Of a stretch of DNA of 64,000 bases, positions 46,111 through 64,000 are shown in pieces. The number at the start of each line of letters is the position of its first letter. Within the stretch, counting starts at the first letter, position 1. The notes under the pieces were generated by a model. It did not search any database, had not been told where the DNA came from, and saw nothing but the letters and a program-made list of their open reading frames with translations. This stretch comes from Methylocapsa sp. S129 (GTDB lineage Bacteria > Pseudomonadota > Alphaproteobacteria > Rhizobiales > Beijerinckiaceae), in contig NZ_LMUI01000016.1 in the NCBI RefSeq assembly GCF_009765995.1, positions 1 to 64,000 of the forward strand. Direction: 5' to 3'. The position numbers were made by a program, and so were the translations under genes.

Positions 46111-46153
46111 GATTGAGCAGCCTTGCAGGTTGGAAAAGTTGGAAGAGGGCGGC

Positions 46154-47125: not shown

Positions 47126-48111
47126 CAGGTTAAGTCCGCGGCGCGGGTGCGGGGCGTGCAGCGCAGGCGATGCCCGTCGGCGATCGCAATCAGCCGCGGC
47201 GGCGCTGTGCGGCAAATCGGCTCGGAATGCGCGCAGCGCGGACCGAAGCGACAGCCATCAATTGTTTCGTCTGGATCGGGAATGCGGCCGGGTATGGCGT
47301 AGAGCCGCGCGGCGCCTCCGTCCAGCGCCGGCATGGAGGCCATCAGGCCTTCCGTATAGGGATGGCGCGGCGACTGGAAGAGAACATCGACCGGCGCATC
47401 CTCGACGATGCGGCCCGCGTACATCACGATGACGCGTCGGGCGAATTCTGCGATCACGCCGAGATCGTGCGAGATCAACATCACGGCCATCCCGAGTTCG
47501 GCGCGCAAGTCGCGCAGCAGTTCGAGGATTTGCGCCTGGATCGTTACGTCGAGCGCGGTTGTCGGTTCATCGGCGATCAACAGACGCGGGCGGCAGGCGA
47601 TGGCGATGGCGATCATCACGCGTTGGCGCATCCCTCCCGACAACCGGTGCGGATATTCGTCAACGCGCCGCGCCGCGTCCGGGATGCGCACGAGGTCAAG
47701 CAATTCGATAGCTTTCTTGCGCGCCGCGGCGCGCGACATGCCCTGATGCAGGCGCAAGGATTCAGAGATCTGGTCGCAGATCGTTAGGACCGGATTGAGC
47801 GACGACATCGGATCCTGGAACACCATGGCGATGTCGCGTCCGCGAATGCGGCGCAGGTCGCGCTCGGACGCCTGCAGCAGATCGCGGCCGGCATAGGAGA
47901 TGGCGCCTGTCGAATATCTTGCGGCGCCGCGCGCGTGCAGCCGCAGGATCGAAAGCGCCGTGACGCTCTTGCCGCTGCCCGATTCGCCAACCACGCCCAC
48001 GCATTCGCCTTCCGCAATATCGAAAGAAACGCCTTCGACGGCGTTGGCCCAACCGCGATCGGTGCGAAATTGCACGGTCAGGTCGTCAATCGAAACCAGC
48101 GGAGAGGCCAT
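47125..48111 (-). CDS. Dipeptide/oligopeptide ABC transporter ATPase DppD/OppD-like
   Basis: 328 residues. Walker A GESGSGKSVTAL, Q-loop FQDPMSSLNPVLTICD, signature RLSGGMRQR, Walker B RLLIADEPTTALD, H-loop LISHDLG. The C-terminal cysteine motif CRFGPRCAHSEPIC is present. Partner of the second ATPase, which it overlaps by 1 bp in the ATGA arrangement. Confidence 0.95.
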   Translation of the reverse strand: MASPLVSIDDLTVQFRTDRGWANAVEGVSFDIAEGECVGVVGESGSGKSVTALSILRLHARGAARYSTGAISYAGRDLLQASERDLRRIRGRDIAMVFQDPMSSLNPVLTICDQISESLRLHQGMSRAAARKKAIELLDLVRIPDAARRVDEYPHRLSGGMRQRVMIAIAIACRPRLLIADEPTTALDVTIQAQILELLRDLRAELGMAVMLISHDLGVIAEFARRVIVMYAGRIVEDAPVDVLFQSPRHPYTEGLMASMPALDGGAARLYAIPGRIPDPDETIDGCRFGPRCAHSEPICRTAPPRLIAIADGHRLRCTPRTRAADLT

Positions 48112-48112
48112 G

Positions 48113-48997
48113 TCAGCCCCGTCCTTTCAGGCGCGGATCCAAGATATCGCGCAGGCCGTCCCCCAGCAGATTGAGCCCGAGCGCAGCCAGACTGATCCCG
48201 AGGCCCGGAAACAGCATCACCCACCACGCCTCTGTCGCATAGTCTCTCCCTTCCGCGATGATATTGCCCCAACTGGGCGTCGGCGGCTGGACGCCGACGC
48301 CCAGGAAGCTGAGCGCGGCTTCCGCCAGAATGGCGTAAGCGAAGACGAAGGTGACATGCACGATCAGCGGACTGATGCTGTTGGGCAGGATATGGCGGAC
48401 CATGATCCGGATGTTGGACGCGCCGGCAATGCGCGCGGCCTCCACATAGTCGAGTTCCCGCACGACCAGGGCGGAGGCGCGCACGATGCGCACGCCCGCC
48501 GGCACATAGGCGACGGTGAGCGCGATGATGACGCTCTCCATACGCGGCCCCAACGCCGCCGTGACGCCCAGCGCCAGCAAGATGGCGGGGAACGACATCA
48601 GCGCGTCCATCACGCGCATCAGAATCGCATCGAGCCGGCGAAACTGCGCTGCGAGAATGCCAATGACCGCGCCAAACAGTCCCGACATGGCGGCGACGGC
48701 GAGACCGATCCAAAGCGAAACGCGCGCCCCATAGAGAACGCGCGTGAAAATATCGCGGCCGAAATTGTCGGTCCCGAACGGAAAAGCTTCGGAAGGCGGC
48801 TTGAAGCGAAACCGTACTTTCATGCTCGACGGATCGACGCCCGTGATGACGGGCGCGAAGATCGCCGCCAGAGTCAGCAGCGCGACAAGAATCAGGCCGA
48901 CCTGAAAGGAGCGGTGTCCCGCCAGCCGGCGCAGCAGCACAAATCGCCGGCGTGGCGCAAGCGATCCTGAAATCGAACCCGCCGCGATGTCAGTCAT
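48113..48997 (-). CDS. Dipeptide/oligopeptide ABC transporter permease DppC/OppC-like
   Basis: 294 residues from ATG 48997; the longer frame overlaps the permease before it by 68 bp. OppC-type motifs: [26 protein letters not shown], the EAA loop [21 protein letters not shown], and [18 protein letters not shown] near the C terminus. About six membrane segments. It overlaps the upstream dppB-like gene by eight bases. Confidence 0.95.
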
Positions 48998-49934
48998 ATC
49001 GCACCCGCGGATCCGCGAATGTGTAAAGCAGGTCGACAGCCAGATTGATTGCGACAAAGGCGAAGCCGTAGATCAGCATCACGCCCTGCACCAGGGGATA
49101 ATCGCGCGCCAATATGCCTTGCACCACCAAACGGCCGACGCCGGGCAAGGCGAAGACTTGCTCGATCACCACGGACCCCCCGATCGCGGTCGAAAGCAAA
49201 ATGCCGATCGCCGTAATGATCAGGATCAGGGCGTTGCGGAAGGCATGCTTGCCAACCGTCGTCCATTCGCTCAGGCCCTTGGATCGGGCGGTTCGGATGA
49301 AATCCTGGCTCAGCACGTCAAGCATCGCCGAACGGGTCATGCGCGCGAGAAAGCCGATCTGGAAGAGAGACAGCATGACCGCCGGCAGAACCAGCGACCG
49401 CAGCCAAAGCCCGGGATCGTGAGAGAATTCCACGTATCCGCTGGTCGGAAACCACCGCAGAATCACGCTGAACAGAATCACCGAAAGAATGGCGATCCAG
49501 AACGCCGGGACCGAGACGCCGATAAGGGCGACCGTCATGACGAACGAGTCGATCCAGGTCTGGCGATAATAAGCTGCGATTGCGCCCGCGAAGATCCCGA
49601 TCGGCAGCGTGATGGCGATCGATAGTCCGGCCAATGACAATGTCACCGGCAGACGCTCGCCCATCGCGGAAAGAACGCTCTGGTTCAGCACCAGCGATGC
49701 GCCGAAATTGCCGTGCGCCAGGTGGACGAACCAGATGCCTAATTGCTCGATGAGCGGCCGGTCGAGCCCGAGATTATGGCGGACGGCTTCAATGGCTTCT
49801 GGAGAGGCCTGATCGCCGGCGATCACCACGGCCGGATCGCCCGGCAGCAGATTGATCAACAGAAAAGCCAGGATCGACACAATGACGATCACCGGCGCCG
49901 CCTGCAGAATCCTAAGCGCGATCAGCCGCGCCAT
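48990..49934 (-). CDS. Dipeptide/oligopeptide ABC transporter permease DppB/OppB-like
   Basis: 314 residues, six membrane segments. [17 protein letters not shown] at the N terminus and the EAA loop ([25 protein letters not shown]) are typical, as is [20 protein letters not shown]. First permease of the operon, about 100 bp after the binding-protein gene. Confidence 0.95.
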
Positions 49935-50036
49935 GAGCGCCTCGCTCTTCCGTTGTCGTCGCCGCGGTTCGCAAATCTTTCGGCGAAGATCAGAACTCTA
50001 GGAAACCGCTCTTGCCTTCACGCCGAAATCGTCCGT

Positions 50037-51602
50037 CTATTCCAGGTAAATATCCCAGAGTTGCAGGATGCCGGCATAGTCGGATTGCGCCTTCAGCTTC
50101 TTTGCATAACCGCTCAGGCGGCCAGAATCCGCGATCTTGATCATATGCGCGTCGCCCAGCACGATCTGCTGGATCTTCAGCCAGGCCGCGCGCCGCTTTT
50201 CGAGATCGGCTCCGGCGAAGAACTCCTTGTAAGCGGCGTCGAGCGCATCGTCGCCTTTGATGCTTGAAAATGCGTAGATCAGCGGCCGCCATGGCGAGGG
50301 CCCTAAAATATGTTCGGGGCCGAATAGCGTCGTCGACAGATTCCAGTCGCCGCTTCCCTGCTGCATATGGGCGGCGTTGGTCGTCCAGTCGACGACCTGC
50401 ACGTCGACGTTCATCCCGGCTTGCTTGAGTTGTTCGGCGACGACCAGCATGGTCGTGCGCATCCACTGGTAATTGCTATTGGTCTCGATGATGATTTTTT
50501 CGTTGTTATAACCGGCCTGCTTCAGCAGTTCTTTGGCTTTGTCGGCGCTCTTCACGTCGTACCAAGGCGTCGGCGCGGCATCGCCCAAATAGTAAGGCGT
50601 GCCGGGAAACGACATCCAGGGGTTGGGCTTGTTGATGCCGCCCGTCGCATCGATGATCTCGTTAATGTCGATCGCGGCGCCGATGGCCCGGCGGATCAGC
50701 ACGTTGGCGGTCGGCCCGTGCTGGGAATTGACGATGATGTAGCTGCCGCCGAGGGGAAACACCTCGCGAATGGCCAGCTCCGGGCGTTGTTCGACCTGTG
50801 CGCGCAACTCGGTCGGGATGGTCGACGCCAGTTGCACTTCGCCCGTCTGCAGCGCCGCGATGCGCGTCGTCGCCTCTGGAATGAAACGATAAAGCACGGA
50901 ATCGAGATAGGCGGTCTTTCGGCCGGCATAGCCGTCGCGCCCGGGCGAACTCATATCGGGCGCGTAGCCGTCGAAGCGCTTGATGACGAGATGGCTGTCC
51001 TTCACCCATTCGCCCAGCGAGAACGGGCCTGTTCCGATCACGTCAACGCTGCGCGCCGGCTTATCCTTTTGCGACGCTGGCAGGATCATGAAGGGAAAGA
51101 TCGGCCCCTTCATCGCATCCAGCAGAACGTAATTGGGGACCTTGAGATGGATGATGAGCGTATAGGGATCAGGGGCCTCGTATCGCTCGACATCCGCCAG
51201 CGCGCTCGCATTGGGACTGACGCGCTGATAGCGCTCAAGCGACGCCTGGACATCGGCCGAAGTGAGTTCGTCGCCATTGTGGAATTTGACGCCGCGCCGG
51301 AGCTCAAACGTATAGGCCTTCGAGTCGGCCGAAGGGGTCGCCTTGGCGGCGAGCATCGGTTTTGTCGCGTTCTGGCCATCGAGCGCAACCAGCCCCTCGA
51401 AGACGTTATGAATGACTTCCAGTTCGACCAGACTCGACGAAACATGCGGATCGAGCGTGCCCGGGCCGGAGACGGTTGCGTAAGCCAGGGCGCCGCCCTT
51501 CTTGGCTTGCGCGAGCGCCGATCCAGAGTTCATCGGTAGCCACGCCAGCGCGCCGATCGCCAACGCTCCTCGAGAGAAATCCCGTCGTCCTAAAGTGGCC
51601 AT
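50037..51602 (-). CDS. ABC transporter substrate-binding protein, family 5
   Basis: 521 residues. The N terminus MATLGRRDFSRGALAIGALA is a twin-arginine (Tat) signal, cleaved near SALAQA. The mature part has the DppA/OppA pattern: YATVSGPGTLDPHVSSSLVE, FELRRGVKFHNGDELTSADV and the LLKQAGYNNEKI motif near residue 380. It binds a peptide-like or other solute in the periplasm and delivers it to the next four products. Its promoter carries one of the four shared 13-bp elements, 75 bp upstream. Confidence 0.93.
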   Translation of the reverse strand: MATLGRRDFSRGALAIGALAWLPMNSGSALAQAKKGGALAYATVSGPGTLDPHVSSSLVELEVIHNVFEGLVALDGQNATKPMLAAKATPSADSKAYTFELRRGVKFHNGDELTSADVQASLERYQRVSPNASALADVERYEAPDPYTLIIHLKVPNYVLLDAMKGPIFPFMILPASQKDKPARSVDVIGTGPFSLGEWVKDSHLVIKRFDGYAPDMSSPGRDGYAGRKTAYLDSVLYRFIPEATTRIAALQTGEVQLASTIPTELRAQVEQRPELAIREVFPLGGSYIIVNSQHGPTANVLIRRAIGAAIDINEIIDATGGINKPNPWMSFPGTPYYLGDAAPTPWYDVKSADKAKELLKQAGYNNEKIIIETNSNYQWMRTTMLVVAEQLKQAGMNVDVQVVDWTTNAAHMQQGSGDWNLSTTLFGPEHILGPSPWRPLIYAFSSIKGDDALDAAYKEFFAGADLEKRRAAWLKIQQIVLGDAHMIKIADSGRLSGYAKKLKAQSDYAGILQLWDIYLE

Positions 51603-51713: not shown

Positions 51714-52940
51714 TTACGTCGCGCTCATGGCGTCGAAAGCGGCCTTGGTCGCTTCCAACGCAAAGTCGATATCCGCCGTAGTATGCGCCGTTGACAGAAA
51801 CATATTGTGGCGCGGATGCAGGTAGACGCCGCGCTTCAACGCCTCCAGCGTGAAACGCTCGCCTTTGGCGAAATCCGCGTCGTCGTCGAAGAGAAGCGTC
51901 GGCATCTGCGGCGGTCCGCTTTGGCGTATGCCGATTCCGGCGGCCTTAGCCTGCGCCGCGATGCCCTTGCGAAGACGCAACCCCATTTCGCGCATCTGGC
52001 GCGGTCCGTCGATGCTTTCAAGCACGTCGAGCGTCGCCACCGCGGCGGCCATCGACACGGCGCTGCACCAGAATGAGCCCGTGACGAATATGCGTGAGGC
52101 CGCATCGCGGAACCGGTCATTGCCCGTCACCGCCGCCAGGGCGTAGCCGTTGGCGATCGCCTTGCTCCAGGCGCTGAGGTCCGGCTGCACCCCGACCAGA
52201 TCCCAGCTTCCGCGCAAGGTGAGCCGAAAGCCGGCGCGGACGTCATCCAGGATTAGCGCCGCGCCCTTGGCGTCGCAGAGTTCGCGCGCGCGTTTTGCGA
52301 AGGCCGCGTCCGGCAGTTCCTGATCAAAACCATAGTCATGCCGGAACGCCGAAACGATCACGCCGGCAAGATCGTCGCCCGCGCTTGCGACCGCCGCTTC
52401 AAGGCTCGCAATGTCGTTGTAAGTGAACGTCAGCAGATGCGCGCGATCCTCCGCCGTCACGCCGAGCGGATGGGGCGAGCACCAGGGAACCGCGCCGTGA
52501 TAGGCGCCTCGCGCCGCCAATATCTTGCGGCGCCCGGTCGCGGCGCGCGCCAGGGTCACGCAGGTGGTCGTGGCGTCGGTTCCGTTCTTCGAGAACATCG
52601 CCCAGTCGGCGTGCGGGATGAGGTCGACAAGACGCTCGGCCAACTCCACCATACGCTCGGACGGCCCGTTGAGGCAGTCGCCTGCCGCCATTTGGCGCTG
52701 CACCGCCTCCGTTACCGCCGGATGTTTGTGGCCCAAGACGATCGGGCCCCAACTGCACATGAAGTCGACATAACGCCGGCCATCGACGTCCCAAAGATGG
52801 CATCCTTCGCCGCGTTCGAAAAATTGCGGATAGCCCGCCGGCAACCCCTCGCTGCGCATGTGGCCGAACATGCCGCCGGGAATGACGCGCCGTGCGCGCG
52901 CCCGAAGCTTCTGGTCTGGCGTCTCTGTATGGACATTCAT
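51714..52940 (-). CDS. Class III aminotransferase, glutamate-1-semialdehyde-mutase-like
   Basis: 408 residues, PLP-dependent fold-type I. The Schiff-base lysine is K260 in LSAWSKAIANGY, and the substrate/cofactor regions KNGTDATTTCVTLARAATGR and LILDDVRAGFRL are clear. VIPGGMFGHM and WDVDGRRYVDFMCSWGPIVLGH resemble HemL, but it is probably an amine/amino-acid aminotransferase or mutase of the island. A paralogue starts at 63649. An operator copy lies 33 bp upstream. Confidence 0.92.
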   Translation of the reverse strand: MNVHTETPDQKLRARARRVIPGGMFGHMRSEGLPAGYPQFFERGEGCHLWDVDGRRYVDFMCSWGPIVLGHKHPAVTEAVQRQMAAGDCLNGPSERMVELAERLVDLIPHADWAMFSKNGTDATTTCVTLARAATGRRKILAARGAYHGAVPWCSPHPLGVTAEDRAHLLTFTYNDIASLEAAVASAGDDLAGVIVSAFRHDYGFDQELPDAAFAKRARELCDAKGAALILDDVRAGFRLTLRGSWDLVGVQPDLSAWSKAIANGYALAAVTGNDRFRDAASRIFVTGSFWCSAVSMAAAVATLDVLESIDGPRQMREMGLRLRKGIAAQAKAAGIGIRQSGPPQMPTLLFDDDADFAKGERFTLEALKRGVYLHPRHNMFLSTAHTTADIDFALEATKAAFDAMSAT

Positions 52941-53021: not shown

Positions 53022-53789
53022 TCACCCCTGTGTCTCGCGCACCGCCGCCTTGCGCTTCTGTGGAGTGCGAAAGCTCAAATGCATGCCGCCATCGGGCGCA
53101 TCGACGAGCGCAACTTCGCCGGTTTCCATCTTGCCCATTAGCGCGACAAGGCCAGCGCCGCCTTCGATCATGTCGTCCTGAACCGCCTGGCGGGCGGCCG
53201 CGGGGTCGCGACGACGCAGCGCCTCGATCAGGGTGAGATGCTGATGCGCGCCGGGATAGGTCGGGGGCGCGTAGGGATAGAGGAATTTGAGCAACGGACC
53301 GTTGCGCAACCAAACGCTCTCCAGAATCGACACGAGATCGCTCATCTGCGAAGCGCGATAGATCAGAAAATGAAAGTGAAAATTGGTCAGCGTCGCGGCC
53401 TCGAAATCGCCACTCTTCTCCGCCGCGATCAATTCCCGATGCGTTTGCTCAAGCCGCACGAGATCGCTCGACGTTATCAATGGGGTCGCTTTCTCGGTGG
53501 CGAGGCCTTCCAGCAGCAAGCGCACCTCGCGCAGCTCTTTGTAGCGGGACAGCGAGAGATTGGCGACGGTGATCGCCTGGCTGGACCGGATCTCCAGCCC
53601 TCCTTCGCGAACGAGCTGCATGATCGCTTCGCGAACCGGGGTCTGGCTGACGCCCATCGCCAAAGCCATCTCGCCGATCCGCAGCCGTTGCCCCGGCCAG
53701 AAGCGTCCAGCCATCAAAGCTTCCCGGAGCTGGGTGTAGACGCGCGACGTGAAATTTTCGCGATTGCTGACTTTCAGTCCGCCCAGCAT
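53022..53789 (-). CDS. GntR-family regulator, FCD (FadR-like) subgroup
   Basis: 255 residues. The N-terminal winged helix (LREALMAGRFWPGQRLRIGEMALAMGVSQTPVREAIMQLV) and a C-terminal helical FCD domain with His ligands (FHFHFLIYRAS; PGAHQHLTLIEALRRRDP) define the subgroup, which usually binds a small carboxylate or metabolite and represses catabolic genes. It lies inside the amide island, 6 bp after the penicillin-acylase gene on the same strand, and is the obvious candidate to bind the four ATATAT(S)ATATAT elements. Confidence 0.92.
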   Translation of the reverse strand: MLGGLKVSNRENFTSRVYTQLREALMAGRFWPGQRLRIGEMALAMGVSQTPVREAIMQLVREGGLEIRSSQAITVANLSLSRYKELREVRLLLEGLATEKATPLITSSDLVRLEQTHRELIAAEKSGDFEAATLTNFHFHFLIYRASQMSDLVSILESVWLRNGPLLKFLYPYAPPTYPGAHQHLTLIEALRRRDPAAARQAVQDDMIEGGAGLVALMGKMETGEVALVDAPDGGMHLSFRTPQKRKAAVRETQG

Positions 53790-53795
53790 CGATAT

Positions 53796-56117
53796 CTATC
53801 CCTGTGCAAGCGCCTCTTCAGGCCCCGAGGCATACACGCCCCCATCCCCGAAGAACAGACGCTGACGCGAGGACGCATCCGTCGCAATCTTCGCCCAATC
53901 GTAAAGCATGGGAACCATCTCGCCGGCGGCCCAGGTCGCGTTCTGGTTCATATGCGAGGAATTGCCCGGTTCGCCAGAGGCGCCGTGAAAGACGATCCAG
54001 CGGCAATTCTCCCAAGCGCCGACATCGAAGACATAGCGGGACAATGAGCCATATACCGCCCGAGAGCCAATGCTTCCGGCGCACCCCGTGGCGAAAACCG
54101 TATCATTGTCGCCGCCGACGGGCGCTGAGACCCGATCGAGCCTGGCCGCTTCGTCAGGAAAGGTACCGGATAGCGGATGAACGAGACGCGGCAAATGCGC
54201 GACGCCCCAATCCTCCAGCGGCGTCGCGGCGGCTTGCGCGAGCGCCAATTGCAAGAGCTCTTCCCATGACGCCCCGCCGAGCAGCGAACGATCGTCGTTG
54301 CGCAAAAGCCCTGGAACCGCCCACCACAATTGATTCTCGGCGTTCGTGCCCGGGGGCACCTGGGCATAGGGGCTCTCCATCGCGGCGCGTAGGCCGCTGC
54401 GGTCGGCGACCAGCTTCGTCAACGCCAGGCGCACGGCATTGTAAGCGGTCGCGCCTTTCGAGGCCGCCGTCATAAGCCCATCCCAATCCAGAATGGCGCG
54501 ATGCAAAGCCGCAGCGGCCGGTTCGCTCACCGTCACCGCGCGAAGACGCTCGCGCATTTCCTGACCCGGAATCGTCTCGAGATCGCGGTGGATCGCCGCC
54601 ATGTCGTCGACCGAAGCGGACGCCTGCGCCGCCAGGCGCCGCCAAATGCGCCGTGCGCGGTGGGGCGGCATCGCATCGGTGCAGAGATAATCGTCGCCCT
54701 CGGCGGCGACGCGGTTGTTCGCGGTGACGATTGCGCCGCCAGGCGGATTGATGGCGGTCGGCATGCGGCTCCAATCAATAATTCCGTCCCATTCGTGCTC
54801 TCCAGTCCAGCCGGGGACTGGCAGCCATCCGTTCGAACGGGGCCGCCGCGGCACCTTGGCGCGGACGCGATAGCCGATCTTGCCGGCCGAGTCCCCTGTG
54901 ACGAGATTATGGTCGATCAAACCCCATTCGCGCGTCGCCTCGTAGAGCGTTTCGACCGTCTTCGCCCGCAACATCGGAATCAGGCAATCGAAGGACCGGT
55001 CGGTCTCCGCAAACTGCATCGAACGGAGCGCCAGCGCCGAGCCCTTGCTCGGATCGCCGGCGATGATCGGGCCATGCCGCGTCTCCACAACCTCGACCCC
55101 GACATCGGTTTCGCCTTTGACGGCGATGTGTTCGCGACGCCGTTGAACCGGCTCCCATTGACCCTTGAACAGGCACGTCTGCGCATCGTCGGAAAAGCGC
55201 TCGACATAGAGGTCGTGAATATCCACGAAAGCGTGGGTGACGCACCAGGCGACTGACCCGTTATGGGCGAAATGGGGGAAACCTGGCACGCCGGGAACGG
55301 TCAGGCCGATCGCATCGAATTCGTCGCAGGCCAGATGGATCTGCGCGTACATATTGGGCATTTCCAACACGCGATGCGGGTCGCCGGCGAGCAGCGGACG
55401 CCCCGTCGCGGTGCGGTCGGGGCTTAACGCCCAGTTGTTGCTGCCGCCGCCGGTGACATCGGGGGCCGCGATATCGAGCAAGGCTTCAATTCCCGGACGC
55501 AGATCTTCGAGCGCCGCGCGATAGGGCCCTGTCTCAAGGCCTGGAGGTAGGCACAGAAGTTCGTTTCCCCCGTCTTCGAAGCGCAGCTTGGCGATTCCCT
55601 CCGCCCCGACGATTGGCAAAGAGGAGGCGCGCCACAGCTTCCACCAGACCGAACCCATCAGAAATCCGATTTGCCTCATCACCGCGATCGAGTGCCAGGG
55701 AAGCCACGCGATCGGCTCGACGTTGAGCAACCGATATTCGACGGGACGATAGCCGGTTGCGATGAAGCCGTTGACGCCGCGCGCGTAGGATTCCAGCATC
55801 GCGCGGGCTTCCGCTCCCAGAGCGGCGAAATCTCGTTGCGAGGCGCCGGCGGTGTTCACCTGCCGCGCCAGGATATCGCCGCTAACCGCCACTTTGCCGA
55901 CCCATTCGGCATAATGTCCGGTGCCCCGGCGAAGCAACGCCTCCATCTGCCAAAGCCTGTCCCGCGCATGGACAAAGCCGAGCGCCGCGAAGGCGTCCGA
56001 TCGGGAGCGCGCTTTGATGTGCGGGATGCCCCAGGCGTCGCGCCATATATCGGCGCCCGGCGATTCGCCCGTTTCGTTGCGAAAATTGGGCGTTGCGGAC
56101 GCTGCCTTTGCAGTCAT
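53796..56117 (-). CDS. Penicillin-acylase-family Ntn hydrolase lacking a signal peptide
   Basis: 773 residues from ATG 56117 (AAGGAA eight bases before it); a TTG 12 codons earlier is possible. The N terminus (MTAKAASATPNFRNETGE) is hydrophilic, so unlike classic periplasmic acylases it should stay in the cytoplasm. The self-cleavage/nucleophile Ser226 is in TGGGSNNWALSP, the alpha chain starts with IWRDAWGIPHIKA, and the beta chain has VPGVPGFPHFAHNGSVAWCVTHAF. It hydrolyses an amide of a carboxylic acid. Neighbours are the dimethylformamidase-like genes and the GntR gene. Confidence 0.92.
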   Translation of the reverse strand: MTAKAASATPNFRNETGESPGADIWRDAWGIPHIKARSRSDAFAALGFVHARDRLWQMEALLRRGTGHYAEWVGKVAVSGDILARQVNTAGASQRDFAALGAEARAMLESYARGVNGFIATGYRPVEYRLLNVEPIAWLPWHSIAVMRQIGFLMGSVWWKLWRASSLPIVGAEGIAKLRFEDGGNELLCLPPGLETGPYRAALEDLRPGIEALLDIAAPDVTGGGSNNWALSPDRTATGRPLLAGDPHRVLEMPNMYAQIHLACDEFDAIGLTVPGVPGFPHFAHNGSVAWCVTHAFVDIHDLYVERFSDDAQTCLFKGQWEPVQRRREHIAVKGETDVGVEVVETRHGPIIAGDPSKGSALALRSMQFAETDRSFDCLIPMLRAKTVETLYEATREWGLIDHNLVTGDSAGKIGYRVRAKVPRRPRSNGWLPVPGWTGEHEWDGIIDWSRMPTAINPPGGAIVTANNRVAAEGDDYLCTDAMPPHRARRIWRRLAAQASASVDDMAAIHRDLETIPGQEMRERLRAVTVSEPAAAALHRAILDWDGLMTAASKGATAYNAVRLALTKLVADRSGLRAAMESPYAQVPPGTNAENQLWWAVPGLLRNDDRSLLGGASWEELLQLALAQAAATPLEDWGVAHLPRLVHPLSGTFPDEAARLDRVSAPVGGDNDTVFATGCAGSIGSRAVYGSLSRYVFDVGAWENCRWIVFHGASGEPGNSSHMNQNATWAAGEMVPMLYDWAKIATDASSRQRLFFGDGGVYASGPEEALAQG

Positions 56118-56167
56118 GAAAGTCGTTCCTTGCCAAGCGCGGTTTTCGTTCAAGAATAGATGTTTGT

Positions 56168-58408
56168 TCAGAGAGGCGTGCTGTCCAGAAAGCGCCTGAG
56201 AACATTGCCCGTCACCTGACTGACGTTGTTCCGATAGCCTGCATGCGAAAGAGCGCAGACCCAGGCGATGGAGCCAGTCGAAAAGACAGCGCCGCCGTTG
56301 GCCGTAGGGAAGAAAGCGAGGTCAGCCCTCACTTGCGCATTTTGGTCGCCCATGATGCCGCGATGCAGCGTGCGCAGTTCTTCAGGGGTCGGCGTTCCGC
56401 CGTAACCGAGGCGGTCGGCCGTCGCCAGCCATACCAGGCCGGGCGGCGAGCCCAGCGTTGGTTCGACGCGATCGATTTCGATGCCAGCCGCGCCATTGCC
56501 GCGCAGGCCGAAATCGCCCAGCGGCGCGTCGAGATCGACGCCCTCTGTCAGCCACGCTACAGAGGGGTCGCGAGCGCCGTCGAGCCAGCGGTAGAAAGAG
56601 GATTCTGTGAATACCTGTCCATCGAAACCGACGCCGAGCAGGCGCTGAGGCGGGCGTCCGTTGCTCCGCCACGTACAGGACGGTTCTCCGGTAAAAGCAA
56701 GCGCGGTTTCTCCCGCTTCTCCCTCCCAGGTGCGCAATCCGCTCATGCCGCGTCGCATCTCGATCGTATGCGGCAGCGTCGGATGATAGGCGATGCGCCA
56801 ATAGAATCCATTGCCGCCAAGATACATGTGGCGACCGCCGCCTTGCTGATAAGCGTCGAAAGCGTCCCATATTTCCCGACTGATATATTCGGGATGCGAG
56901 CCTGTGATGACGCAGGCGTAGGGCGCCAGCGTCTGGACGCCATGGCGATGGATATCGTCGTCGGTAATGATATCGTAGGACTGCCCCAATTCCTCGAGCC
57001 AATCGAGCAAATGCGTGTCGTTTCCATAGTTGAAAACATTGCCGCGCGGCCGCGTATTAAGGATGGGGCGACGGGCCGTGCTGATGCTCCAGCCGCTTCC
57101 GTCGTTGTGGGTGTCGTAGGTGGAGAGGCCGAGCTCGCGATGCTCCTGGAGGTAGAGATCGTCGTGCGATAGCGTGAGCAGCCCCTCCAGCATGGCTTCG
57201 GCATGCACCTGGTCAAGACGAAGCGCGCTATTGGCGTAAGCTAGGAAAGTGCCCGTGCTAGCGACGAAGGCGAGCCGCGACTGAGGCTTGCCGAGTTCCG
57301 CGCGCACAAAGAACGCGACAAAGCTTTCCACCGGGTCGGCGTTCCCCTGCCTGGCTCGCAACCGCAGCGCATAGAAGCCGCTGCGCCAAGCGCTTGGCGT
57401 CGTCAGATGAAGCGTGGGGGCCCAACCAGCGTCCGCCATGTCGTCGCTATGGAAATGGATGGCTCCATATTGCGATGGCGCTTCGGTCCAGCGTTCGCTG
57501 CTTCCATTCCAATTGACCCCCGTCATCGCGCGCGTCGGCATCTGGCGCAACACGCCGTGCAGTCGATGCGCCGAGAGATCGCGCACCTGATCGGTCGGGA
57601 TATCCTGAGAGAAGTCCCAGGCGGCGATCAGAAGAGGATCGGCGGCAGCGGGCGTGGCGGCTTCGCAAAGGCGATGCAGCCCATCGATCGATAGCGCGGC
57701 GGCGTAGACGCGCGGGCGATCGATCTTTCCGTCGTAGAAGGCTTCGCAAAGGGCCGCGTCGCCAGCGTCTTTGGCGCGGGCGGCGATGACGAGCGGAGTA
57801 TCCATGGGCCAGGAAAGCGATGTCGGCCCTTCGCCCTCGACGACAACGCTGCGGTCGCGTCCGGCTTGTGGGTCGAGGCTGCGGACCATCACGCTGATGC
57901 GTCCGGTAGCGGGATCGTAGGCGCCGCCGGCCAGCACCCATTCCCGGGTCAATAGAGGAAGCCGCGACGCGACGCGCCAGGACTGGCCCTTGGCGGCCAG
58001 CACAAACTCAAGACAACCATCGGCGTCGAGGCCAAGCCGCCAGCCGGCCTTGATATCTTCCCGCCAGCGCGACAGGATCGTCTGCGGACGGGCGCCGGGC
58101 AAGGTCGGCCAGAGAAAAGCGCCGACGGTGAACGCGCCAAGCTTCGCCAGCGTCGGCGAATCTGGAATGATGGCGCAAGAACCGGGATAAATGGGCTGAT
58201 TGGCGAGGGCGACCGGTCCGTTGATCGCGCAGTCGAGTTCCGTCAGCTTCAGACCCGGTCCGTTCGGATCCGGGTCTGCGCATCGCACGCGCACCAGCGT
58301 CGCCTCGGCGCCGTCTAGCGTTTTGCTCGACAGGTGGAAAGCGATCGGCTCGCCGGGCGAGACGATCAGCGGCCATGCATAGCCCAGAACGGCCGTTGTA
58401 TCGGTCAT
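56168..58408 (-). CDS. dmfA2: N,N-dimethylformamidase-like large (beta) subunit
   Basis: 746 residues from ATG 58408 (ATGA overlap with the small subunit gene). The characterised enzyme hydrolyses dimethylformamide to formate and dimethylamine with a mononuclear iron held by two Tyr and one Glu. Matching residues are Y391 (FLAYANSALR), Y431 (LSTYDTHNDGSGW) and E507 with H505 (TGSHPEYIS); N533 (GGNGFYWR) and E644 (AGIEIDRV) match further catalytic residues in spacing. A LamG-like sandwich lies at about 85-260. The family holds uncharacterised relatives, so DMF itself is not assured. Confidence 0.85.
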   Translation of the reverse strand: MTDTTAVLGYAWPLIVSPGEPIAFHLSSKTLDGAEATLVRVRCADPDPNGPGLKLTELDCAINGPVALANQPIYPGSCAIIPDSPTLAKLGAFTVGAFLWPTLPGARPQTILSRWREDIKAGWRLGLDADGCLEFVLAAKGQSWRVASRLPLLTREWVLAGGAYDPATGRISVMVRSLDPQAGRDRSVVVEGEGPTSLSWPMDTPLVIAARAKDAGDAALCEAFYDGKIDRPRVYAAALSIDGLHRLCEAATPAAADPLLIAAWDFSQDIPTDQVRDLSAHRLHGVLRQMPTRAMTGVNWNGSSERWTEAPSQYGAIHFHSDDMADAGWAPTLHLTTPSAWRSGFYALRLRARQGNADPVESFVAFFVRAELGKPQSRLAFVASTGTFLAYANSALRLDQVHAEAMLEGLLTLSHDDLYLQEHRELGLSTYDTHNDGSGWSISTARRPILNTRPRGNVFNYGNDTHLLDWLEELGQSYDIITDDDIHRHGVQTLAPYACVITGSHPEYISREIWDAFDAYQQGGGRHMYLGGNGFYWRIAYHPTLPHTIEMRRGMSGLRTWEGEAGETALAFTGEPSCTWRSNGRPPQRLLGVGFDGQVFTESSFYRWLDGARDPSVAWLTEGVDLDAPLGDFGLRGNGAAGIEIDRVEPTLGSPPGLVWLATADRLGYGGTPTPEELRTLHRGIMGDQNAQVRADLAFFPTANGGAVFSTGSIAWVCALSHAGYRNNVSQVTGNVLRRFLDSTPL

Positions 58409-58764
58409 GCCATTGGTTCCTTGAACGATGGGGGCAGGGAGGTCCCGGTCAGCGCCTCCCAACGCCGCTTGAATACTTCCCACTCCGCTTCGGCGATGGA
58501 GGTGAAGACCTGGTTGGACAGAATCTCGATCGGCTTGCCGCGCATCCGCGGCAAGCGGCCAAGCGCCCATCGTCGTCCGGGCTCCTTCACGACGAGCACG
58601 TAGCGGCCGCTCGCCTCGGAATCGCCGGACCAGCGCATGCGATGCAGGAGCTTTTGCAGCTCATCCCCATGGGGGCCGCGTGGCTTACGGCGGAATTCCT
58701 CGACGAGATCGAGGCGGCTCGCATCGATCGGCCAATGAGCGGCCGCCGTATAATTGACCAACAT
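58405..58764 (-). CDS. dmfA1: N,N-dimethylformamidase-like small (alpha) subunit
   Basis: 119 residues. The known DMFase has a small subunit of about 15 kDa next to the large one. The order small-large, the four-base overlap with the large-subunit gene and the sequence (ELQKLLHRMRWSGDSE; GRYVLVVKEPGRRWALGRLP) support this. It contains no metal site. It begins 6 bp after the ABC binding-protein gene. Confidence 0.8.
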   Translation of the reverse strand: MLVNYTAAAHWPIDASRLDLVEEFRRKPRGPHGDELQKLLHRMRWSGDSEASGRYVLVVKEPGRRWALGRLPRMRGKPIEILSNQVFTSIAEAEWEVFKRRWEALTGTSLPPSFKEPMA

Positions 58765-58770
58765 GGTCGG

Positions 58771-59826
58771 CTACCGCGTCAGCCAGGACACCCAGCGCTC
58801 GCGCATCTTGGCGCGCTCGCTGGCGATCCACGCATAGTCGGCGATGATCAGCTTCTCGTAATTTTCGGGATAGCTTGGCCGATAGCGCCGCTCTTCGGGA
58901 GGCGCTTGCGCGCTCGCTTCCTTATTGTTCGAATCGAAGCTGACCTCGGTGCTGAACGGCAGGTGCTCGGTGGGGTTCTGCACGAAGAAGTCCAGGAATT
59001 TTAACGCGTTCTGCATATTCGGGCTGCCCTTGAGCACGGCCCAATTGCCCGTGTCGCGTATGGACCCGTTCCAGGTGAAATCGAAGTCGCCGCTCTTGGT
59101 CAGCGGCACGGCGCGACTGGAATAAAGCATGCTCATGACGGCGTCGCCGCCGCGCAGCACCTGCATCGAATTGTCGCCGCTCTTCCACCACACCGCGACC
59201 TGCGGCTTGATGGCGTCGAGCTTCTTGTAGGCGCGGTCGAGATCCATCGGAAACAGCTTGTCGCGCGGCACGCCATCGGCGATCAGCGCCGCCAGTGGGA
59301 CCCACCATTCGCGGTCGCCCGTGTCCGGCAGGGAGCGCGGCCCGGGGAATTTGGCGGTGTCGAAGAAATCCGCCCAGGATTGAGGGCCGCCGTTGGGGAA
59401 GGCTTTCTTGCTCCAGGTCAGCACCATGCCGCCCACCGTGCGGATCAACCCTTTCGGGCCGCAACTGTTGGGCAAGGCATGGGCGACGATCCCCGGCATA
59501 TTGGCGCAGTCGAGCGTCTCAAGAATGTCCGCTTGCTGGATAAGATCCGGAGGCGTGGCCGTCACAACGTCGAACGGCACGTTGCCGGTACGCTCGCCGG
59601 CGATGGCGCGCGCCCATTGGTCCGGGATTTCAATCGCGACGGCGCGGATACGGATGCCGGTCTCAGCTTCGAAGCGCTTGTAAAAATGCGTCTGCAAGCT
59701 GTTGGTCATCAGGCCGCCCGTGGTGGCGACAATGACCTCGCCTGGGTCGGCTCGGGCGCTTCGAAGCGCGGGAAAAGCGGCAACAGCTCCCGCTGCTGCG
59801 ATCAGGCTACGGCGTGTCATCCTCAT
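58771..59826 (-). CDS. ABC transporter substrate-binding protein, polyamine/Fe3+ type
   Basis: 351 residues. A Tat-like signal (MTRRSLIAAAGAVAAFPALR, cleaved near SARA) precedes a bacterial-SBP family 1/8 fold: VIVATTGGLMTNSLQTHFYKRFEAETG and PQSWADFFDTAKFPG, as in PotD/AfuA-type proteins. It would carry a cationic or small organic solute for the PotB-, PotC- and PotA-like components. It is followed 6 bp later by the dmfA1 gene, linking uptake with hydrolysis. Confidence 0.92.
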   Translation of the reverse strand: MRMTRRSLIAAAGAVAAFPALRSARADPGEVIVATTGGLMTNSLQTHFYKRFEAETGIRIRAVAIEIPDQWARAIAGERTGNVPFDVVTATPPDLIQQADILETLDCANMPGIVAHALPNSCGPKGLIRTVGGMVLTWSKKAFPNGGPQSWADFFDTAKFPGPRSLPDTGDREWWVPLAALIADGVPRDKLFPMDLDRAYKKLDAIKPQVAVWWKSGDNSMQVLRGGDAVMSMLYSSRAVPLTKSGDFDFTWNGSIRDTGNWAVLKGSPNMQNALKFLDFFVQNPTEHLPFSTEVSFDSNNKEASAQAPPEERRYRPSYPENYEKLIIADYAWIASERAKMRERWVSWLTR

Positions 59827-59857: not shown

Positions 59858-60655
59858 CTAACTTCGGCTCATGCCGCGCCTCAAGAAATGCCCTGCCGTC
59901 AGCGCGAGCAAGGTCAATCCCGTGAGCATGGTCGCCACGGCGGCGAGGGTCGGCGAAATATTGTAATCGATATCCTCGAACATCTTGCGCGGCAGCGACT
60001 TGTGATCGAGATCAGAAATGAAGAACGAGATGACTGGCTCATCGAAGGAGATGATGAAGGCGAAGAGCGCCGCCGACACGACGCCGGGTGCAATCAGGGG
60101 CAATGTCACGTGAAAGAAAGCCCGTAGCGGTCCCGCTCCGCAGGATAGAGCGGCGCGTTCAAGATCGGCGTCGAAGCGATAAAGGGACGCCAGCAACGTG
60201 AATATGACGAAGGGCAGGGCGAGCGCCGTATGCGCGACGACAAAGCCGACGGTCGTTCCCGTCAGGCGCAGCCGGTCGAAGACGAGGAACATCGCGATGG
60301 CGAGCGCGATATTGGGCACGATCACCGGCCCGACAACGAGAAGTTCGAACAAGGACTTGCCCGGCAAGCGGCCGCGCACCAAAGCAAGGGAGACGAGCGT
60401 GCCGACGACGGTCGCGACGATCATCGTCAGCACGGCGATCCTCAAGCTGAACAGCGTCGAGTCGACCCATTCCGGATCTGCGAAGAATTCAGCGTACCAG
60501 TGCAACGTGAAGCCGTTGGGCGGGAAGTGCAAATAACGATCCGGACCAAAGGACATCGGAATGATAAGAATTGTGGGCAGCAGCAGGAAGACGGTCACGG
60601 CATAAGCCACGGCGCTGACGGTCATGATTCCGGAAGATGTGCGGCGCCGCCTCAT
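59858..60655 (-). CDS. ABC transporter permease, PotC-like
   Basis: 265 residues from ATG 60655 (the longer frame overlaps the preceding permease). Six membrane segments and the EAA loop (LERAALSCGAGPLRAFFHVTLPLIAPG) are present. PotC-like members pair with PotB-like proteins. It overlaps the upstream permease by four bases. Confidence 0.93.
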   Translation of the reverse strand: MRRRRTSSGIMTVSAVAYAVTVFLLLPTILIIPMSFGPDRYLHFPPNGFTLHWYAEFFADPEWVDSTLFSLRIAVLTMIVATVVGTLVSLALVRGRLPGKSLFELLVVGPVIVPNIALAIAMFLVFDRLRLTGTTVGFVVAHTALALPFVIFTLLASLYRFDADLERAALSCGAGPLRAFFHVTLPLIAPGVVSAALFAFIISFDEPVISFFISDLDHKSLPRKMFEDIDYNISPTLAAVATMLTGLTLLALTAGHFLRRGMSRS

Positions 60656-61521
60656 ACCTGTCCCACGAAGCGATCGAGCCTGATGAGGCGGTTGAAGATC
60701 AAGACGAGGCAGAGAACAAAAGCAAGAAGCACGCCGATGATGGCGCCCGAGAAGGGCCAATCGAGCAACTCAGTCACCTGTTGCTGCACCAAAGTCGCCA
60801 GCATCATTTGCTGGGGGCCGCCGACGAGCGCCGGCGTCACAAAAAAACCGAGCGCAAGGAGGAACACCATAAGGCATCCCGACGCGACGCCGGGAAGCGT
60901 CAGCGGCAAGACCACATGGCGGAAGGCGGCGAAGCCGCCCGCTCCCAGAACCTGGGCTGCTCGCATATAATCGTCAGGGATGCCGCGCAACGCGGCGTAA
61001 AGCGGCAGAACCATGAAGGGCAGGAGGACATGGCTCATCGCCAGAACCACCGCGCCTTCCGTGTAGAGGAACTGCACGGGGGCGTCGACCAGGCCGAGCG
61101 CGGTGAGGATCTGATTGACCACGCCATTGCGCTGCAACAGCACGAGCCACGCATAGGTGCGCACCAGCACCGAAGTCCAAAGCGGCAAAAGAACGGCGAT
61201 CAGCAGAAGCCCGAGCAATAGACCGCGGCTGCGCGCGATCAGCCAAGCGAGCGGATAACCAAGCAGTAGCGCCGCGATCGTCACCAGAGCGGAAATGCGC
61301 AACGTGCGCAGCATGACGCGCAGATAGACCTCTTGGTCGAAGACCCTCGCGTAATTGTCGAGATTGAATTTGGGAACGGAGAGGCTCTCGTGCAGCAGGG
61401 TAAAAAGCGGCAGAAGAAAAGCGAGAATCATCACCAGGATGAACGGCGTCGCCAACAGCAGGCTCGCCGCGGGACTGTAGGTGCGGCCGCCGAGCGTGAA
61501 GCTTGTGGGCCGCTTTGTCAT
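60652..61521 (-). CDS. ABC transporter permease, PotB-like
   Basis: 289 residues from ATG 61521 (ATGA overlap with the ATPase stop). Six membrane segments; the EAA loop is DDYMRAAQVLGAGGFAAFRHVVLPLTLPG. Partner of the PotC-like protein. Confidence 0.94.
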   Translation of the reverse strand: MTKRPTSFTLGGRTYSPAASLLLATPFILVMILAFLLPLFTLLHESLSVPKFNLDNYARVFDQEVYLRVMLRTLRISALVTIAALLLGYPLAWLIARSRGLLLGLLLIAVLLPLWTSVLVRTYAWLVLLQRNGVVNQILTALGLVDAPVQFLYTEGAVVLAMSHVLLPFMVLPLYAALRGIPDDYMRAAQVLGAGGFAAFRHVVLPLTLPGVASGCLMVFLLALGFFVTPALVGGPQQMMLATLVQQQVTELLDWPFSGAIIGVLLAFVLCLVLIFNRLIRLDRFVGQV

Positions 61522-62639
61522 GATGTGGGATAAGCCCGCGCATCCTGCGGGCGCCATGTGAGGGATAGGTCCGCGCCAGGCCGCGGTTCCGCTGTTTCAT
61601 CGCCCGCCGAGAGCCTCGCGCGCAGAATCGGCCCCTTCGTGCGCAGCATCAATGTCGTGACGCTGCCCGCATAGATCGCTTCCTCCACCGTTCCGCCGAC
61701 CCCGCCCGCCGCCGCCGGTCCGAGCCGGACGCGTTCCGGGCGGACGGCGAGGCGGACTTGGGTTCCCTTGCGAAGCGGGGTCGCCGCGCAGGCCTGGGCG
61801 ATTTCGCCGCCTTCAAGCTGGACCGCGAGTTGTTCGTTGGCTGCGGCGTCGCTTGTCGCGATTCCGGGCCAGAAATTGCTCTCGCCGATGAAGCCCGCGA
61901 CGAATTCGGTCGCCGGCGCCTCATAGAGATCTTTCGGGGCGCCGATCTGCTGGAGCGCGCCGAGGTTCAAGACCGCGACCCGATCGGCCATCGTCAGAGC
62001 TTCGGTCTGGTCATGCGTGACGAAAATGACCGTGACGCCAAGTTTGCGCTGAAGATGCTTGATCTCGATCTGCATTTCTTCGCGCAGGTTTTTATCGAGC
62101 GCAGAGAGGGGCTCGTCCATCAGCAGGACCTGCGGATTGTAGACGATGGCGCGCGCGAGCGCGACGCGTTGCTGCTGTCCTCCCGACAATTGCGCTGGCC
62201 GGCGGTCCCCGTAGCCATCGAGACGGACCGTCTGAAGAGCCGCGCGCGCGCGCTTCTCGCGCTCGGCTCGCCCGACTTTGCGCATTCTTAGGGGAAAAGC
62301 GATGTTGTCGAGGACGCTCATGTGCGGAAATAGCGTGTAGCGCTGGAACACCATGCCAAGGTCACGCTTGTCAGGCGACATCCAGGTCACGTCGCGGCCG
62401 CTAATCTCGATGCGTCCGGAATCGGGAAAGTCGAATCCGGCGATGTTCATCAAGATTGTCGTCTTGCCGGAGCCCGACGGACCCAAAAGCGCCAGAAATT
62501 CACCGCCGCGGACATCAAGGCTGACGCCATTGACCGCCACGACATCGGCATAGCGTTTGACCAGGTCGCGCACCGCCACCTGACCCGCGGATCCGACGGC
62601 AATCGATGAATTTCGTCGCTCGTGCAAATACTTGCTCAT
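61518..62639 (-). CDS. ABC transporter ATPase, PotA-like
   Basis: 373 residues from ATG 62639. No good Shine-Dalgarno precedes it, and the operator/AT element lies 19 bp upstream, so a short-leader or leaderless transcript is possible. Walker A GPSGSGKTTI, Q-loop FQRYTLFPHMS, signature QLSGGQQQR, Walker B VLLMDEPLSALD, H-loop VTHDQTEAL, and a C-terminal TOBE domain (VRPERVRLGP). First gene of the long minus-strand transcript of the amide island. Confidence 0.95.
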   Translation of the reverse strand: MSKYLHERRNSSIAVGSAGQVAVRDLVKRYADVVAVNGVSLDVRGGEFLALLGPSGSGKTTILMNIAGFDFPDSGRIEISGRDVTWMSPDKRDLGMVFQRYTLFPHMSVLDNIAFPLRMRKVGRAEREKRARAALQTVRLDGYGDRRPAQLSGGQQQRVALARAIVYNPQVLLMDEPLSALDKNLREEMQIEIKHLQRKLGVTVIFVTHDQTEALTMADRVAVLNLGALQQIGAPKDLYEAPATEFVAGFIGESNFWPGIATSDAAANEQLAVQLEGGEIAQACAATPLRKGTQVRLAVRPERVRLGPAAAGGVGGTVEEAIYAGSVTTLMLRTKGPILRARLSAGDETAEPRPGADLSLTWRPQDARAYPTS

Positions 62640-62657
62640 CGAGAGTGTCAATTCGTA

Positions 62658-62670
62658 ATATATAATATAT
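62658..62670. promoter_or_regulatory. AT-rich operator, copy 3
   Basis: ATATATAATATAT, consensus with A at the centre, between the PotA-like gene (start 62639, minus) and the SDR gene (start 62767, plus). It may serve both. Confidence 0.6.
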
Positions 62671-62766
62671 CTTACTCTCTCCGCTCCGCAACCAAAAAGA
62701 CGCTGGGCCTGATCGCAGCCCTTTTGGCGCCGGATGAGGCGATGCGATGACAGAGAGGTTCTCCTT

Positions 62767-63582
62767 ATGGCGAAGAGCAAAACTCGATCGACTGGACCGG
62801 TCGCCATCGTCACGGGCGGAACGCACGGCATTGGGCGCGCGAGCGTCGAATTACTATCAGAGTCAGGTTGGCAAGTCGTGTTTCAGGGGCGCAGCGAGCG
62901 GGCGGGTCTCGAGCTTGAAGCAAGCCGCGCGGGCTTGAGCTATGTGCCGGGCGACCTTACGGAAGAAAAAATCATCCAGCGTCTGGTGGCCCGCGCCGAA
63001 GAGCTTGGCGAGGGACGTATTGCTGGCCTTGTGAACAACGCCGGCGTCGGCGTTCGCAAGCGCTTCGAGGATTGTGAAGCGTCGGATTGGGATAAGCTGT
63101 TCGCGATCAACGCCCGCAGCGCGTTTCTGGTGACGCGCGCGGCGTTGAAGGGCCTCAGAGCGGCGCGCGGCTCTGTTGTGTTTATCTCCTCGGTGGCGGG
63201 CCGCGGCGGCGAGGATGGGCTGTCGGTCTACTGCGCCACGAAGGCGGCATTGATCGGGCTGGCCAAAGCGCTCGCCATTGAACTTGGAGAGGAGGTCCGC
63301 TTCAATGTTCTGTGTCCGGGCCAGATCGCCACGCGCATGATGGCGCGCGTGGTCGAGGCGCCCGATCTCCTCGCCGCGGTCTCCAGCCGCATTCCGATGC
63401 GGCGCCTCGGAGAGGCGGGCGAGGTCGCCTCCGCAATCTCATTTCTTCTGTCTCCCGCGTCGTCCTTCATCAACGGCGTCGTCTTCGCCGTCGATGGCGG
63501 CGAGACGGCCGGCATCATGGGTGTCGCCGCGCCGAGCCCTCAACCGCGCAAGCGACGAAGCAAGGCGTCAGTGGGAAACTGA
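62767..63582 (+). CDS. Short-chain dehydrogenase/reductase
   Basis: 271 residues from ATG 62767, which has GAGAGG upstream; the frame opens at 62734. Cofactor motif VTGGTHGIGRAS, the NNAG motif (GLVNNAGVGVR), Ser in FISSVAGRG and Tyr-Lys in YCATK. The C-terminal end has a basic tail (RKRRSK). First plus-strand gene of the island, followed 66 bp later by the second aminotransferase. It may oxidise or reduce an aldehyde/alcohol made in the pathway; that is inference. Confidence 0.92.
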   Translation: MAKSKTRSTGPVAIVTGGTHGIGRASVELLSESGWQVVFQGRSERAGLELEASRAGLSYVPGDLTEEKIIQRLVARAEELGEGRIAGLVNNAGVGVRKRFEDCEASDWDKLFAINARSAFLVTRAALKGLRAARGSVVFISSVAGRGGEDGLSVYCATKAALIGLAKALAIELGEEVRFNVLCPGQIATRMMARVVEAPDLLAAVSSRIPMRRLGEAGEVASAISFLLSPASSFINGVVFAVDGGETAGIMGVAAPSPQPRKRRSKASVGN

Positions 63583-63599
63583 CGTTGTTGACGCTATAA

Positions 63600-63612
63600 A
63601 TATATCATATAT
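63600..63612. promoter_or_regulatory. AT-rich operator, copy 4
   Basis: ATATATCATATAT, the exact reverse complement of the copy at 52973, 37 bp upstream of the second aminotransferase start. Confidence 0.65.
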
Positions 63613-63648
63613 TATCTTAGCGATTGATCGACTGACACAGGTGTGCGG

Positions 63649-64000
63649 ATGACCCGGGTTGATTCAGCACTGAATTTGACGCGGGACGCCGATCTGCGTC
63701 GGCGCGCGACGAAAGTCATTCCTGGCGGCATGTGGGGGCATATGAATGTCGCCCGTCTCCCGCCGGGCTATCCCCAATATTTCAGCCAAGCGCGCGACTG
63801 TCGGGTCTGGGACGTCGATGGCAATGAATATGTCGACATGATGTGTTCCTTTGGCCCGATCATTCTCGGCCATGCCGATCCGGATGCGGAAAACGCCGCC
63901 GCCCAGCAGCGCAGCCGCGGCGATACGATGACAGGGCCGGCCGAATGCCAGGTCGAGCTTGCAGAGCTTCTCGTCGATACGCTCCCTCATGCCGACTGGG
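63649..64000 (+). CDS. Class III aminotransferase, second copy, 5' part
   Basis: The frame starts at ATG 63649 and runs off the right edge after 117 codons. It aligns without gaps to the aminotransferase at 51714-52940: VIPGGMWGHM against VIPGGMFGHM, WDVDGNEYVDMMCSFGPIILGH against the same region, and PHADW; by hand 59 of 102 residues are identical. The PLP lysine lies beyond the window. It is a paralogue within the same island, preceded by an operator copy. Confidence 0.88.
   Translation, partial: MTRVDSALNLTRDADLRRRATKVIPGGMWGHMNVARLPPGYPQYFSQARDCRVWDVDGNEYVDMMCSFGPIILGHADPDAENAAAQQRSRGDTMTGPAECQVELAELLVDTLPHADW

What the first reader, a model, noticed from the sequence alone, without database searches (positions are those of the whole stretch)
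56168..58764. DMFase-like two-subunit enzyme with its iron ligands conserved
Y391, Y431 and E507, plus H505, N533 and E644, match in context and spacing the residues I recall for the 2-Tyr-1-carboxylate iron site of the Paracoccus dimethylformamidase. So this chromosomal homologue is likely active, possibly on another N-substituted formamide. Its neighbour genes differ from the known DMF loci.
Basis: partly seen in the sequence, partly recalled or inferred. Interest (0 to 1): 0.7.

Follow-up and report, generated by a model that had tools for sequence, protein, structure and literature searches.

The report
Two-subunit iron amide hydrolase, not formamidase
A bacterial relative of the iron enzyme that breaks down the solvent DMF keeps its whole catalytic core, but it belongs to a separate branch that is repeatedly found beside a fumonisin-type transaminase and an uptake system, so it probably releases an amine from some imported larger amide rather than attacking formamides.

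Summary
Window 58764-56168 (- strand) encodes a 119-aa small and a 746-aa large subunit overlapping by ATGA. Y391, Y431, E507, H505, N533 and E644 align with DMFase Y399, Y440, E521, H519, N547 and E657: the iron ligands plus residues needed for activity. Both subunits match the DMFase chains by fold. The inference drawn from it is weaker. The same six residues occur in nearly all 88 family members compared, including N-acetyl-(R)-beta-phenylalanine acylase, so they indicate an active amide hydrolase, not a formamidase. The DMFase constriction F693 is T680 here. The enzyme sits in its own clade, apart from both characterised enzymes. In 22 of 34 loci of that clade, in about seven arrangements, a class III aminotransferase close to FumI (deaminates hydrolysed fumonisin) lies within about 10 kb, against 0 of 28 loci of other family branches; only 6 of 192 genomes have one. 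The window has it too, and a second copy just past its end. Best reading: a cytoplasmic Fe-dependent two-subunit amidohydrolase that cleaves an imported N-acyl amine, whose amine product is deaminated by the FumI-like enzyme. The substrate is unknown; formamide specificity is unlikely but untested.

The parts
56168..58408 (-). large subunit (746 aa) of a DMFase-type amidohydrolase; Y391, Y431, E507 predicted Fe ligands, H505, N533, E644 predicted catalytic
   Evidence: PF20254 295.8 bits; 6LVB E=7e-129 and 8HUY E=5e-130; fold match to 6LVB TM 0.79-0.81; residue mapping
58405..58764 (-). small subunit (119 aa), DmfA1-like, shorter N-terminus than the 141-aa DMFase small subunit
   Evidence: profile of orthologues hits DmfA1 of pAMI2 (24.9 bits); AlphaFold model's only PDB matches with E<=0.001 are 6lvb_B and 6lvv_B; upstream of the large gene in all 34 clade loci (and, for L057 and L102)
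58771..59826 (-). solute-binding protein of an ABC importer, mannopine/polyamine-binding type
   Evidence: SBP_bac_8; best solved relatives are mannopine-, polyamine- and agropine-type binding proteins
59858..60760 (-). ABC permease, PotC-like
   Evidence: conserved in 26 of 34 clade loci
60652..61557 (-). ABC permease, PotB-like
   Evidence: conserved in 26 of 34 clade loci
61518..62831 (-). ABC ATPase, PotA-like (longest ORF; true start probably further in)
   Evidence: TIGR01187 above its cut-off; conserved in 26 of 34 clade loci
53796..56153 (-). penicillin-acylase-family Ntn hydrolase; Ser238 at the expected start of the beta chain
   Evidence: PF01804 566.6 bits; glutaryl-7-ACA acylase 4HSR (beta chain aligned from residue 238) and D-succinylase among the closest solved
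53022..53789 (-). GntR/FCD regulator
   Evidence: conserved in 19 of 34 clade loci
51714..52940 (-). class III aminotransferase, FumI-like (49% identity to aminopentol aminotransferase 6HBS)
   Evidence: 436 bits to 6HBS against 196 or less to any other solved structure; identity; linked to this clade
44671..51602 (-). same-strand continuation: oligopeptide-type ABC importer (binding protein 50037-51602, permeases, two ATPases) and amidase (44671-46110)
   Evidence: membership of the cluster is less certain than for the other parts
62734..64000 (+). divergent arm: SDR 62734-63582 and the start (63643) of a second FumI-like aminotransferase that continues beyond the window to contig position 64896
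   Evidence: 62% identity to the first copy; coordinates

Best explanation
A cytoplasmic, Fe(III)-dependent two-subunit amide hydrolase of the DMFase fold. Y391, Y431 and E507 hold one Fe(III); the amide carbonyl binds the iron, water on the iron attacks with E644 as base, N533 stabilises the oxyanion and H505 assists, as proposed for DMFase. The small subunit is needed for an active complex. The physiological substrate is not DMF or a small formamide but a larger N-acyl amine, brought in by the adjacent Pot/opine-type ABC importer, and the freed amine is deaminated by the FumI-like transaminase. Shown here: homology, both subunits, the residue set, a separate clade, and repeated linkage to the transporter and the aminotransferase. 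Inferred: metal identity, catalytic activity, location, the substrate class and the order of steps.
For: Residues and fold (DMFase mutants in PMC7686228). Small subunit present in all 34 clade loci, and the DMFase large subunit alone is inactive (PMC7686228). Own clade, branches leading to it supported at 0.97-1.0. F693 becomes T680, and clade-specific S394, R397, Q400, H402 follow ligand Y391. FumI-like aminotransferase at 50% identity or more in 22 of 34 clade loci against 0 of 28 control loci of other branches, while only 6 of 192 alphaproteobacterial genomes have one; about seven arrangements. The own genome has two copies, both within about 6 kb of the pair. Pot-type importer in 26 of 34.
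Against: No substrate is identified. The Reyranella-type loci, among the nearest in sequence, lack the aminotransferase within about 10 kb. The cluster holds other amide hydrolases (penicillin-acylase type, amidase) that could supply the amine instead. The clade loci are not independent samples (many Roseomonas), so the Fisher p-value overstates significance. The AlphaFold model has pLDDT below 50 around Y391 and Y431, so site geometry was not tested. No signal-peptide prediction was run.
Confidence: 0.6

Rival explanations
1. One reading: an N-substituted formamide hydrolase close to DMFase in specificity.
For: Six catalytic residues and both subunits as in DMFase.
Against: Those residues are shared by the acylase 8HUY and the whole family; constriction F693 is T680 and residues after Y391 differ; the DMFase branch is a different clade; the neighbours are an importer and an aminotransferase, not the DMF-locus genes.
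Confidence: 0.1
2. An N-acyl beta-amino acid acylase, working like N-acetyl-(R)-beta-phenylalanine acylase, with the class III aminotransferase as a beta-amino acid transaminase.
For: Slightly higher identity to 8HUY than to DMFase (38% against 36%); an aspartate-aminotransferase-family gene is also near an 8HUY-like gene in Roseomonas marmotae p1318-3.
Against: The window enzyme is not in the 8HUY clade and has a small subunit, whereas the R. marmotae gene has no small-subunit gene before it and only the large chain of 8HUY was seen. The aminotransferase is far closer to FumI (436 bits) than to beta-phenylalanine aminotransferases (120 bits or less).
Confidence: 0.2
3. The hydrolase is a side enzyme: the pathway amide is cut by the penicillin-acylase-type or amidase gene, and the DMFase-like pair acts on a minor or different compound.
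For: Three amide hydrolases lie in one same-strand run; FumI-like genes also occur without a DMFase-like gene nearby, as on Shinella pShin-08.
Against: The small and large subunits with the importer are the most constant part of the clade loci; the penicillin acylase is in only 11 of 34.
Confidence: 0.1

Closest known systems
N,N-dimethylformamidase of Paracoccus (DmfA1/DmfA2; PDB 6LVB; PMC7686228)
   Same: Two subunits in the same gene order, same large-subunit fold, same iron ligands and catalytic residues, small subunit of the same fold.
   Different: 36% identity, different clade, F693 replaced by T680, shorter small subunit, no LuxR regulator or IS elements beside it; placed in an importer/aminotransferase cluster.
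N-acetyl-(R)-beta-phenylalanine acylase (PDB 8HUY, 8I59, 8I5A)
   Same: Same large-subunit fold and the same six residues; 38% identity.
   Different: Different clade; no small-subunit gene before its close relative on R. marmotae p1318-3; different loop after the first ligand Tyr.
FumI aminotransferase of the Sphingopyxis MTA144 fum cluster (PDB 6HBS; PMC2933618)
   Same: The neighbouring aminotransferase is 49% identical to FumI, which moves the C2 amino group of hydrolysed fumonisin B1 to pyruvate.
   Different: From memory, the fum cluster has no DMFase-like subunits; here the importer, SDR and other partners make a different set.

Membership tests
DMFase-type two-subunit iron amidohydrolases (DMFA2_C, PF20254) | C-terminal DMFA2_C catalytic domain | tested here: met
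   295.8 bits against a cut-off of 27, residues 292-724
DMFase-type two-subunit iron amidohydrolases (DMFA2_C, PF20254) | 2-Tyr-1-Glu iron ligands and catalytic His, Asn, Glu | tested here: met
   Y391, Y431, E507, H505, N533, E644 align with the DMFase residues
DMFase-type two-subunit iron amidohydrolases (DMFA2_C, PF20254) | separate small subunit of the DmfA1 fold encoded just upstream | tested here: met
   profile hit and fold match
DMFase-type two-subunit iron amidohydrolases (DMFA2_C, PF20254) | bound mononuclear Fe(III) | not testable with these tools
   needs purified protein; model too uncertain at the site
N,N-dimethylformamidase (the specific enzyme) | membership of the DMFase clade | tested here: not met
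   separate clade; 36% identity, while the Methylobacterium DM1 and pAMI2 copies are about 100% and 84% identical to 6LVB
N,N-dimethylformamidase (the specific enzyme) | F693 constriction of the pocket | tested here: not met
   T680 at the aligned position; the alignment in this loop is less certain than at the ligands
N,N-dimethylformamidase (the specific enzyme) | hydrolysis of DMF | not testable with these tools
   needs an assay
N-acetyl-(R)-beta-phenylalanine acylase | membership of the 8HUY clade | tested here: not met
   8HUY groups with L066 and L038, not with the window

The most novel reading that the evidence does not exclude
The cluster encodes an undescribed route for N-acylated vicinal amino alcohols or amino polyols: import, iron-dependent deacylation by the DMFase-like pair, deamination by the FumI-like enzyme to an alpha-hydroxyketone, then C-C cleavage by a thiamine-diphosphate enzyme (E1-type fusion in Roseomonas and Elioraea, a transketolase-like pair beyond the window end here), with a four-carbon acid sugar kinase and class II aldolase taking up the fragments. 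The iron hydrolase would then have a natural role quite unlike solvent degradation.
Probability: 0.2. Interest if true: 0.75.

Novelty: new variant of a known kind. Interest (0 to 1): 0.42.

Why it matters
Records of this family are widely labelled 'N,N-dimethylformamidase', yet 81 of 387 sampled alphaproteobacterial genomes carry a match and I found only two characterised members. Showing that the catalytic set is family-wide, and that this clade travels with a FumI-like aminotransferase and an importer, gives a concrete test for what these iron hydrolases do in nature. It also offers a candidate pathway of amide deacylation followed by deamination.

Tried and rejected
Sequence search of the small subunit against the PDB found nothing; a broader profile and the fold search did. 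NCBIfam has no family for either subunit. The literature library holds no paper on the beta-phenylalanine acylase that I could find. Considered and dropped: the residues as evidence for formamide specificity (they are shared family-wide); the AlphaFold model as a test of site geometry (pLDDT below 50 around Y391-Y431); ceramide-like lipids as a named substrate (chemical analogy only, no evidence).

Full report
OBSERVATION. The finding covers two genes on the - strand. The small subunit runs from 58764 to 58405 (119 aa) and the large subunit from 58408 to 56168 (746 aa), with a 4-base ATGA overlap; the longer ORF from 58570 in the list is an upstream extension. In that alignment and in a MAFFT alignment of 88 sequences, Y391, Y431, H505, E507, N533 and E644 fall on Y399, Y440, H519, E521, N547 and E657. 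The structure paper names Y399, Y440 and E521 as iron ligands and reports Y440A, E521A, H519A, N547A and E657A as inactive (PMC7686228).

FOLD AND SUBUNITS. The AlphaFold model of the large subunit (mean pLDDT 70.9) matches 6LVB over its whole length (TM about 0.8) and 8HUY (TM about 0.75). Its confidence is below 50 at residues 389-448, so the iron geometry could not be tested. The small subunit finds nothing in the PDB by sequence, but a profile of its relatives hits DmfA1 of plasmid pAMI2 with 24.9 bits, and its model (mean pLDDT 84.6) finds only DMFase small subunits with E at or below 0.001. A small-subunit gene lies just upstream in all 34 loci of the clade. The DMFase large subunit alone is inactive (PMC7686228), so the pair should be tested together.

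WHAT THE RESIDUES DO AND DO NOT SAY. Five of the six residues are identical in all 88 family members compared and N533 in 86, and this includes the beta-phenylalanine acylase. They support an active amide hydrolase and say nothing about formamides. The residue that narrows the DMFase pocket, F693, is T680 here, though this loop aligns less surely. Just after ligand Y391 the clade has its own conserved residues, S394, R397, Q400 and H402, where DMFase and the acylase differ. Whether these line the pocket is an inference from sequence proximity.

PLACE IN THE FAMILY. The family is common: 81 of 387 sampled alphaproteobacterial genomes have a match (some of these are short or weak), and the own genome holds a second member at 42% identity on contig C51. 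In a tree the window enzyme belongs to a clade with Reyranella, Roseomonas-type, Bosea, Bradyrhizobium, Stella, Elioraea, Variovorax, Rhizobium and Agrobacterium larrymoorei sequences. The DMFase branch and the acylase branch lie elsewhere; the branches leading to the window clade have support 0.97-1.0, while the deepest nodes are poorly supported.

NEIGHBOURHOOD. Upstream on the same strand lie a PotABC-like transporter and a binding protein whose closest solved relatives include mannopine, polyamine and agropine binders. Downstream are a penicillin-acylase-family protein closest to glutaryl-7-ACA acylase, with D-succinylase also among the best hits, a GntR regulator, a class III aminotransferase, an oligopeptide-type importer and an amidase. 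The Pot-type transporter is beside the pair in 26 of 34 clade loci. The aminotransferase is 49% identical to FumI, which moves the C2 amino group of hydrolysed fumonisin B1 to pyruvate (PMC2933618). At 50% identity or more it occurs in 22 of 34 clade loci and in none of 28 loci of other family branches. Only 6 of 192 genomes have one at E<=1e-90. Its position varies: next to the large gene (Stella), after an E1-type thiamine enzyme (Roseomonas, Elioraea), on the opposite strand downstream (Bosea, Bradyrhizobium), upstream in three ways, 4.8 kb downstream (Rhizobium), and behind the acylase and GntR genes in the window. This speaks for repeated linkage, though many loci are related and the Fisher p-value (2e-8) must not be taken at face value. 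The own genome carries a second FumI-like gene that starts at 63643 and runs past the window end, followed by a transketolase-like pair, a four-carbon acid sugar kinase and a class II aldolase. A similar set, with an E1-type enzyme and without DMFase-like genes nearby, is on Shinella plasmid pShin-08.

INTERPRETATION. The best reading is a cytoplasmic iron amide hydrolase that releases an amine from an imported N-acyl compound, the amine then being deaminated by the FumI-like enzyme. The chemistry at the site is carried over from DMFase. The substrate class is inferred from neighbours only. Other branches of the family also sit near amine-deaminating genes (D-amino acid dehydrogenase, primary-amine oxidase), which fits amide cleavage followed by deamination as a general theme, but this was read from annotations and not counted.

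NOVELTY. The enzyme is a member of a known family. Its clade has no characterised member that I could find, and its pathway partners differ from those of the DMF locus, so I call it a new variant of a known kind; the enzyme chemistry itself is expected to be the known one.

Noticed in passing
own genome contig C51:476545-478785 (loci L002, L096): A second DMFase-like large subunit (42% identity) with its own small subunit, in a different branch of the family.
   Followed up: partly
contig C23:63643-71757, just past the window end (locus L116): Second FumI-like aminotransferase, transketolase-like pair, four-carbon acid sugar kinase, class II aldolase, carbon-nitrogen hydrolase and cyclase-family gene, then another Pot-type transporter.
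   Followed up: partly
Methylobacterium sp. DM1 plasmid pLVM1 (locus L065, 5974-8277): A copy about 100% identical to the aligned part of the 6LVB DMFase, annotated as hypothetical protein.
   Followed up: no
Roseomonas marmotae p1318-3 (locus L066, 7980-10160): Large subunit 48% identical to the beta-phenylalanine acylase, near an aspartate-aminotransferase-family gene and with no small-subunit gene before it.
   Followed up: no
Halalkalicoccus jeotgali plasmid 2 (locus L062, 7980-10292): A DMFase-like gene in a haloarchaeon, next to a primary-amine oxidase.
   Followed up: no
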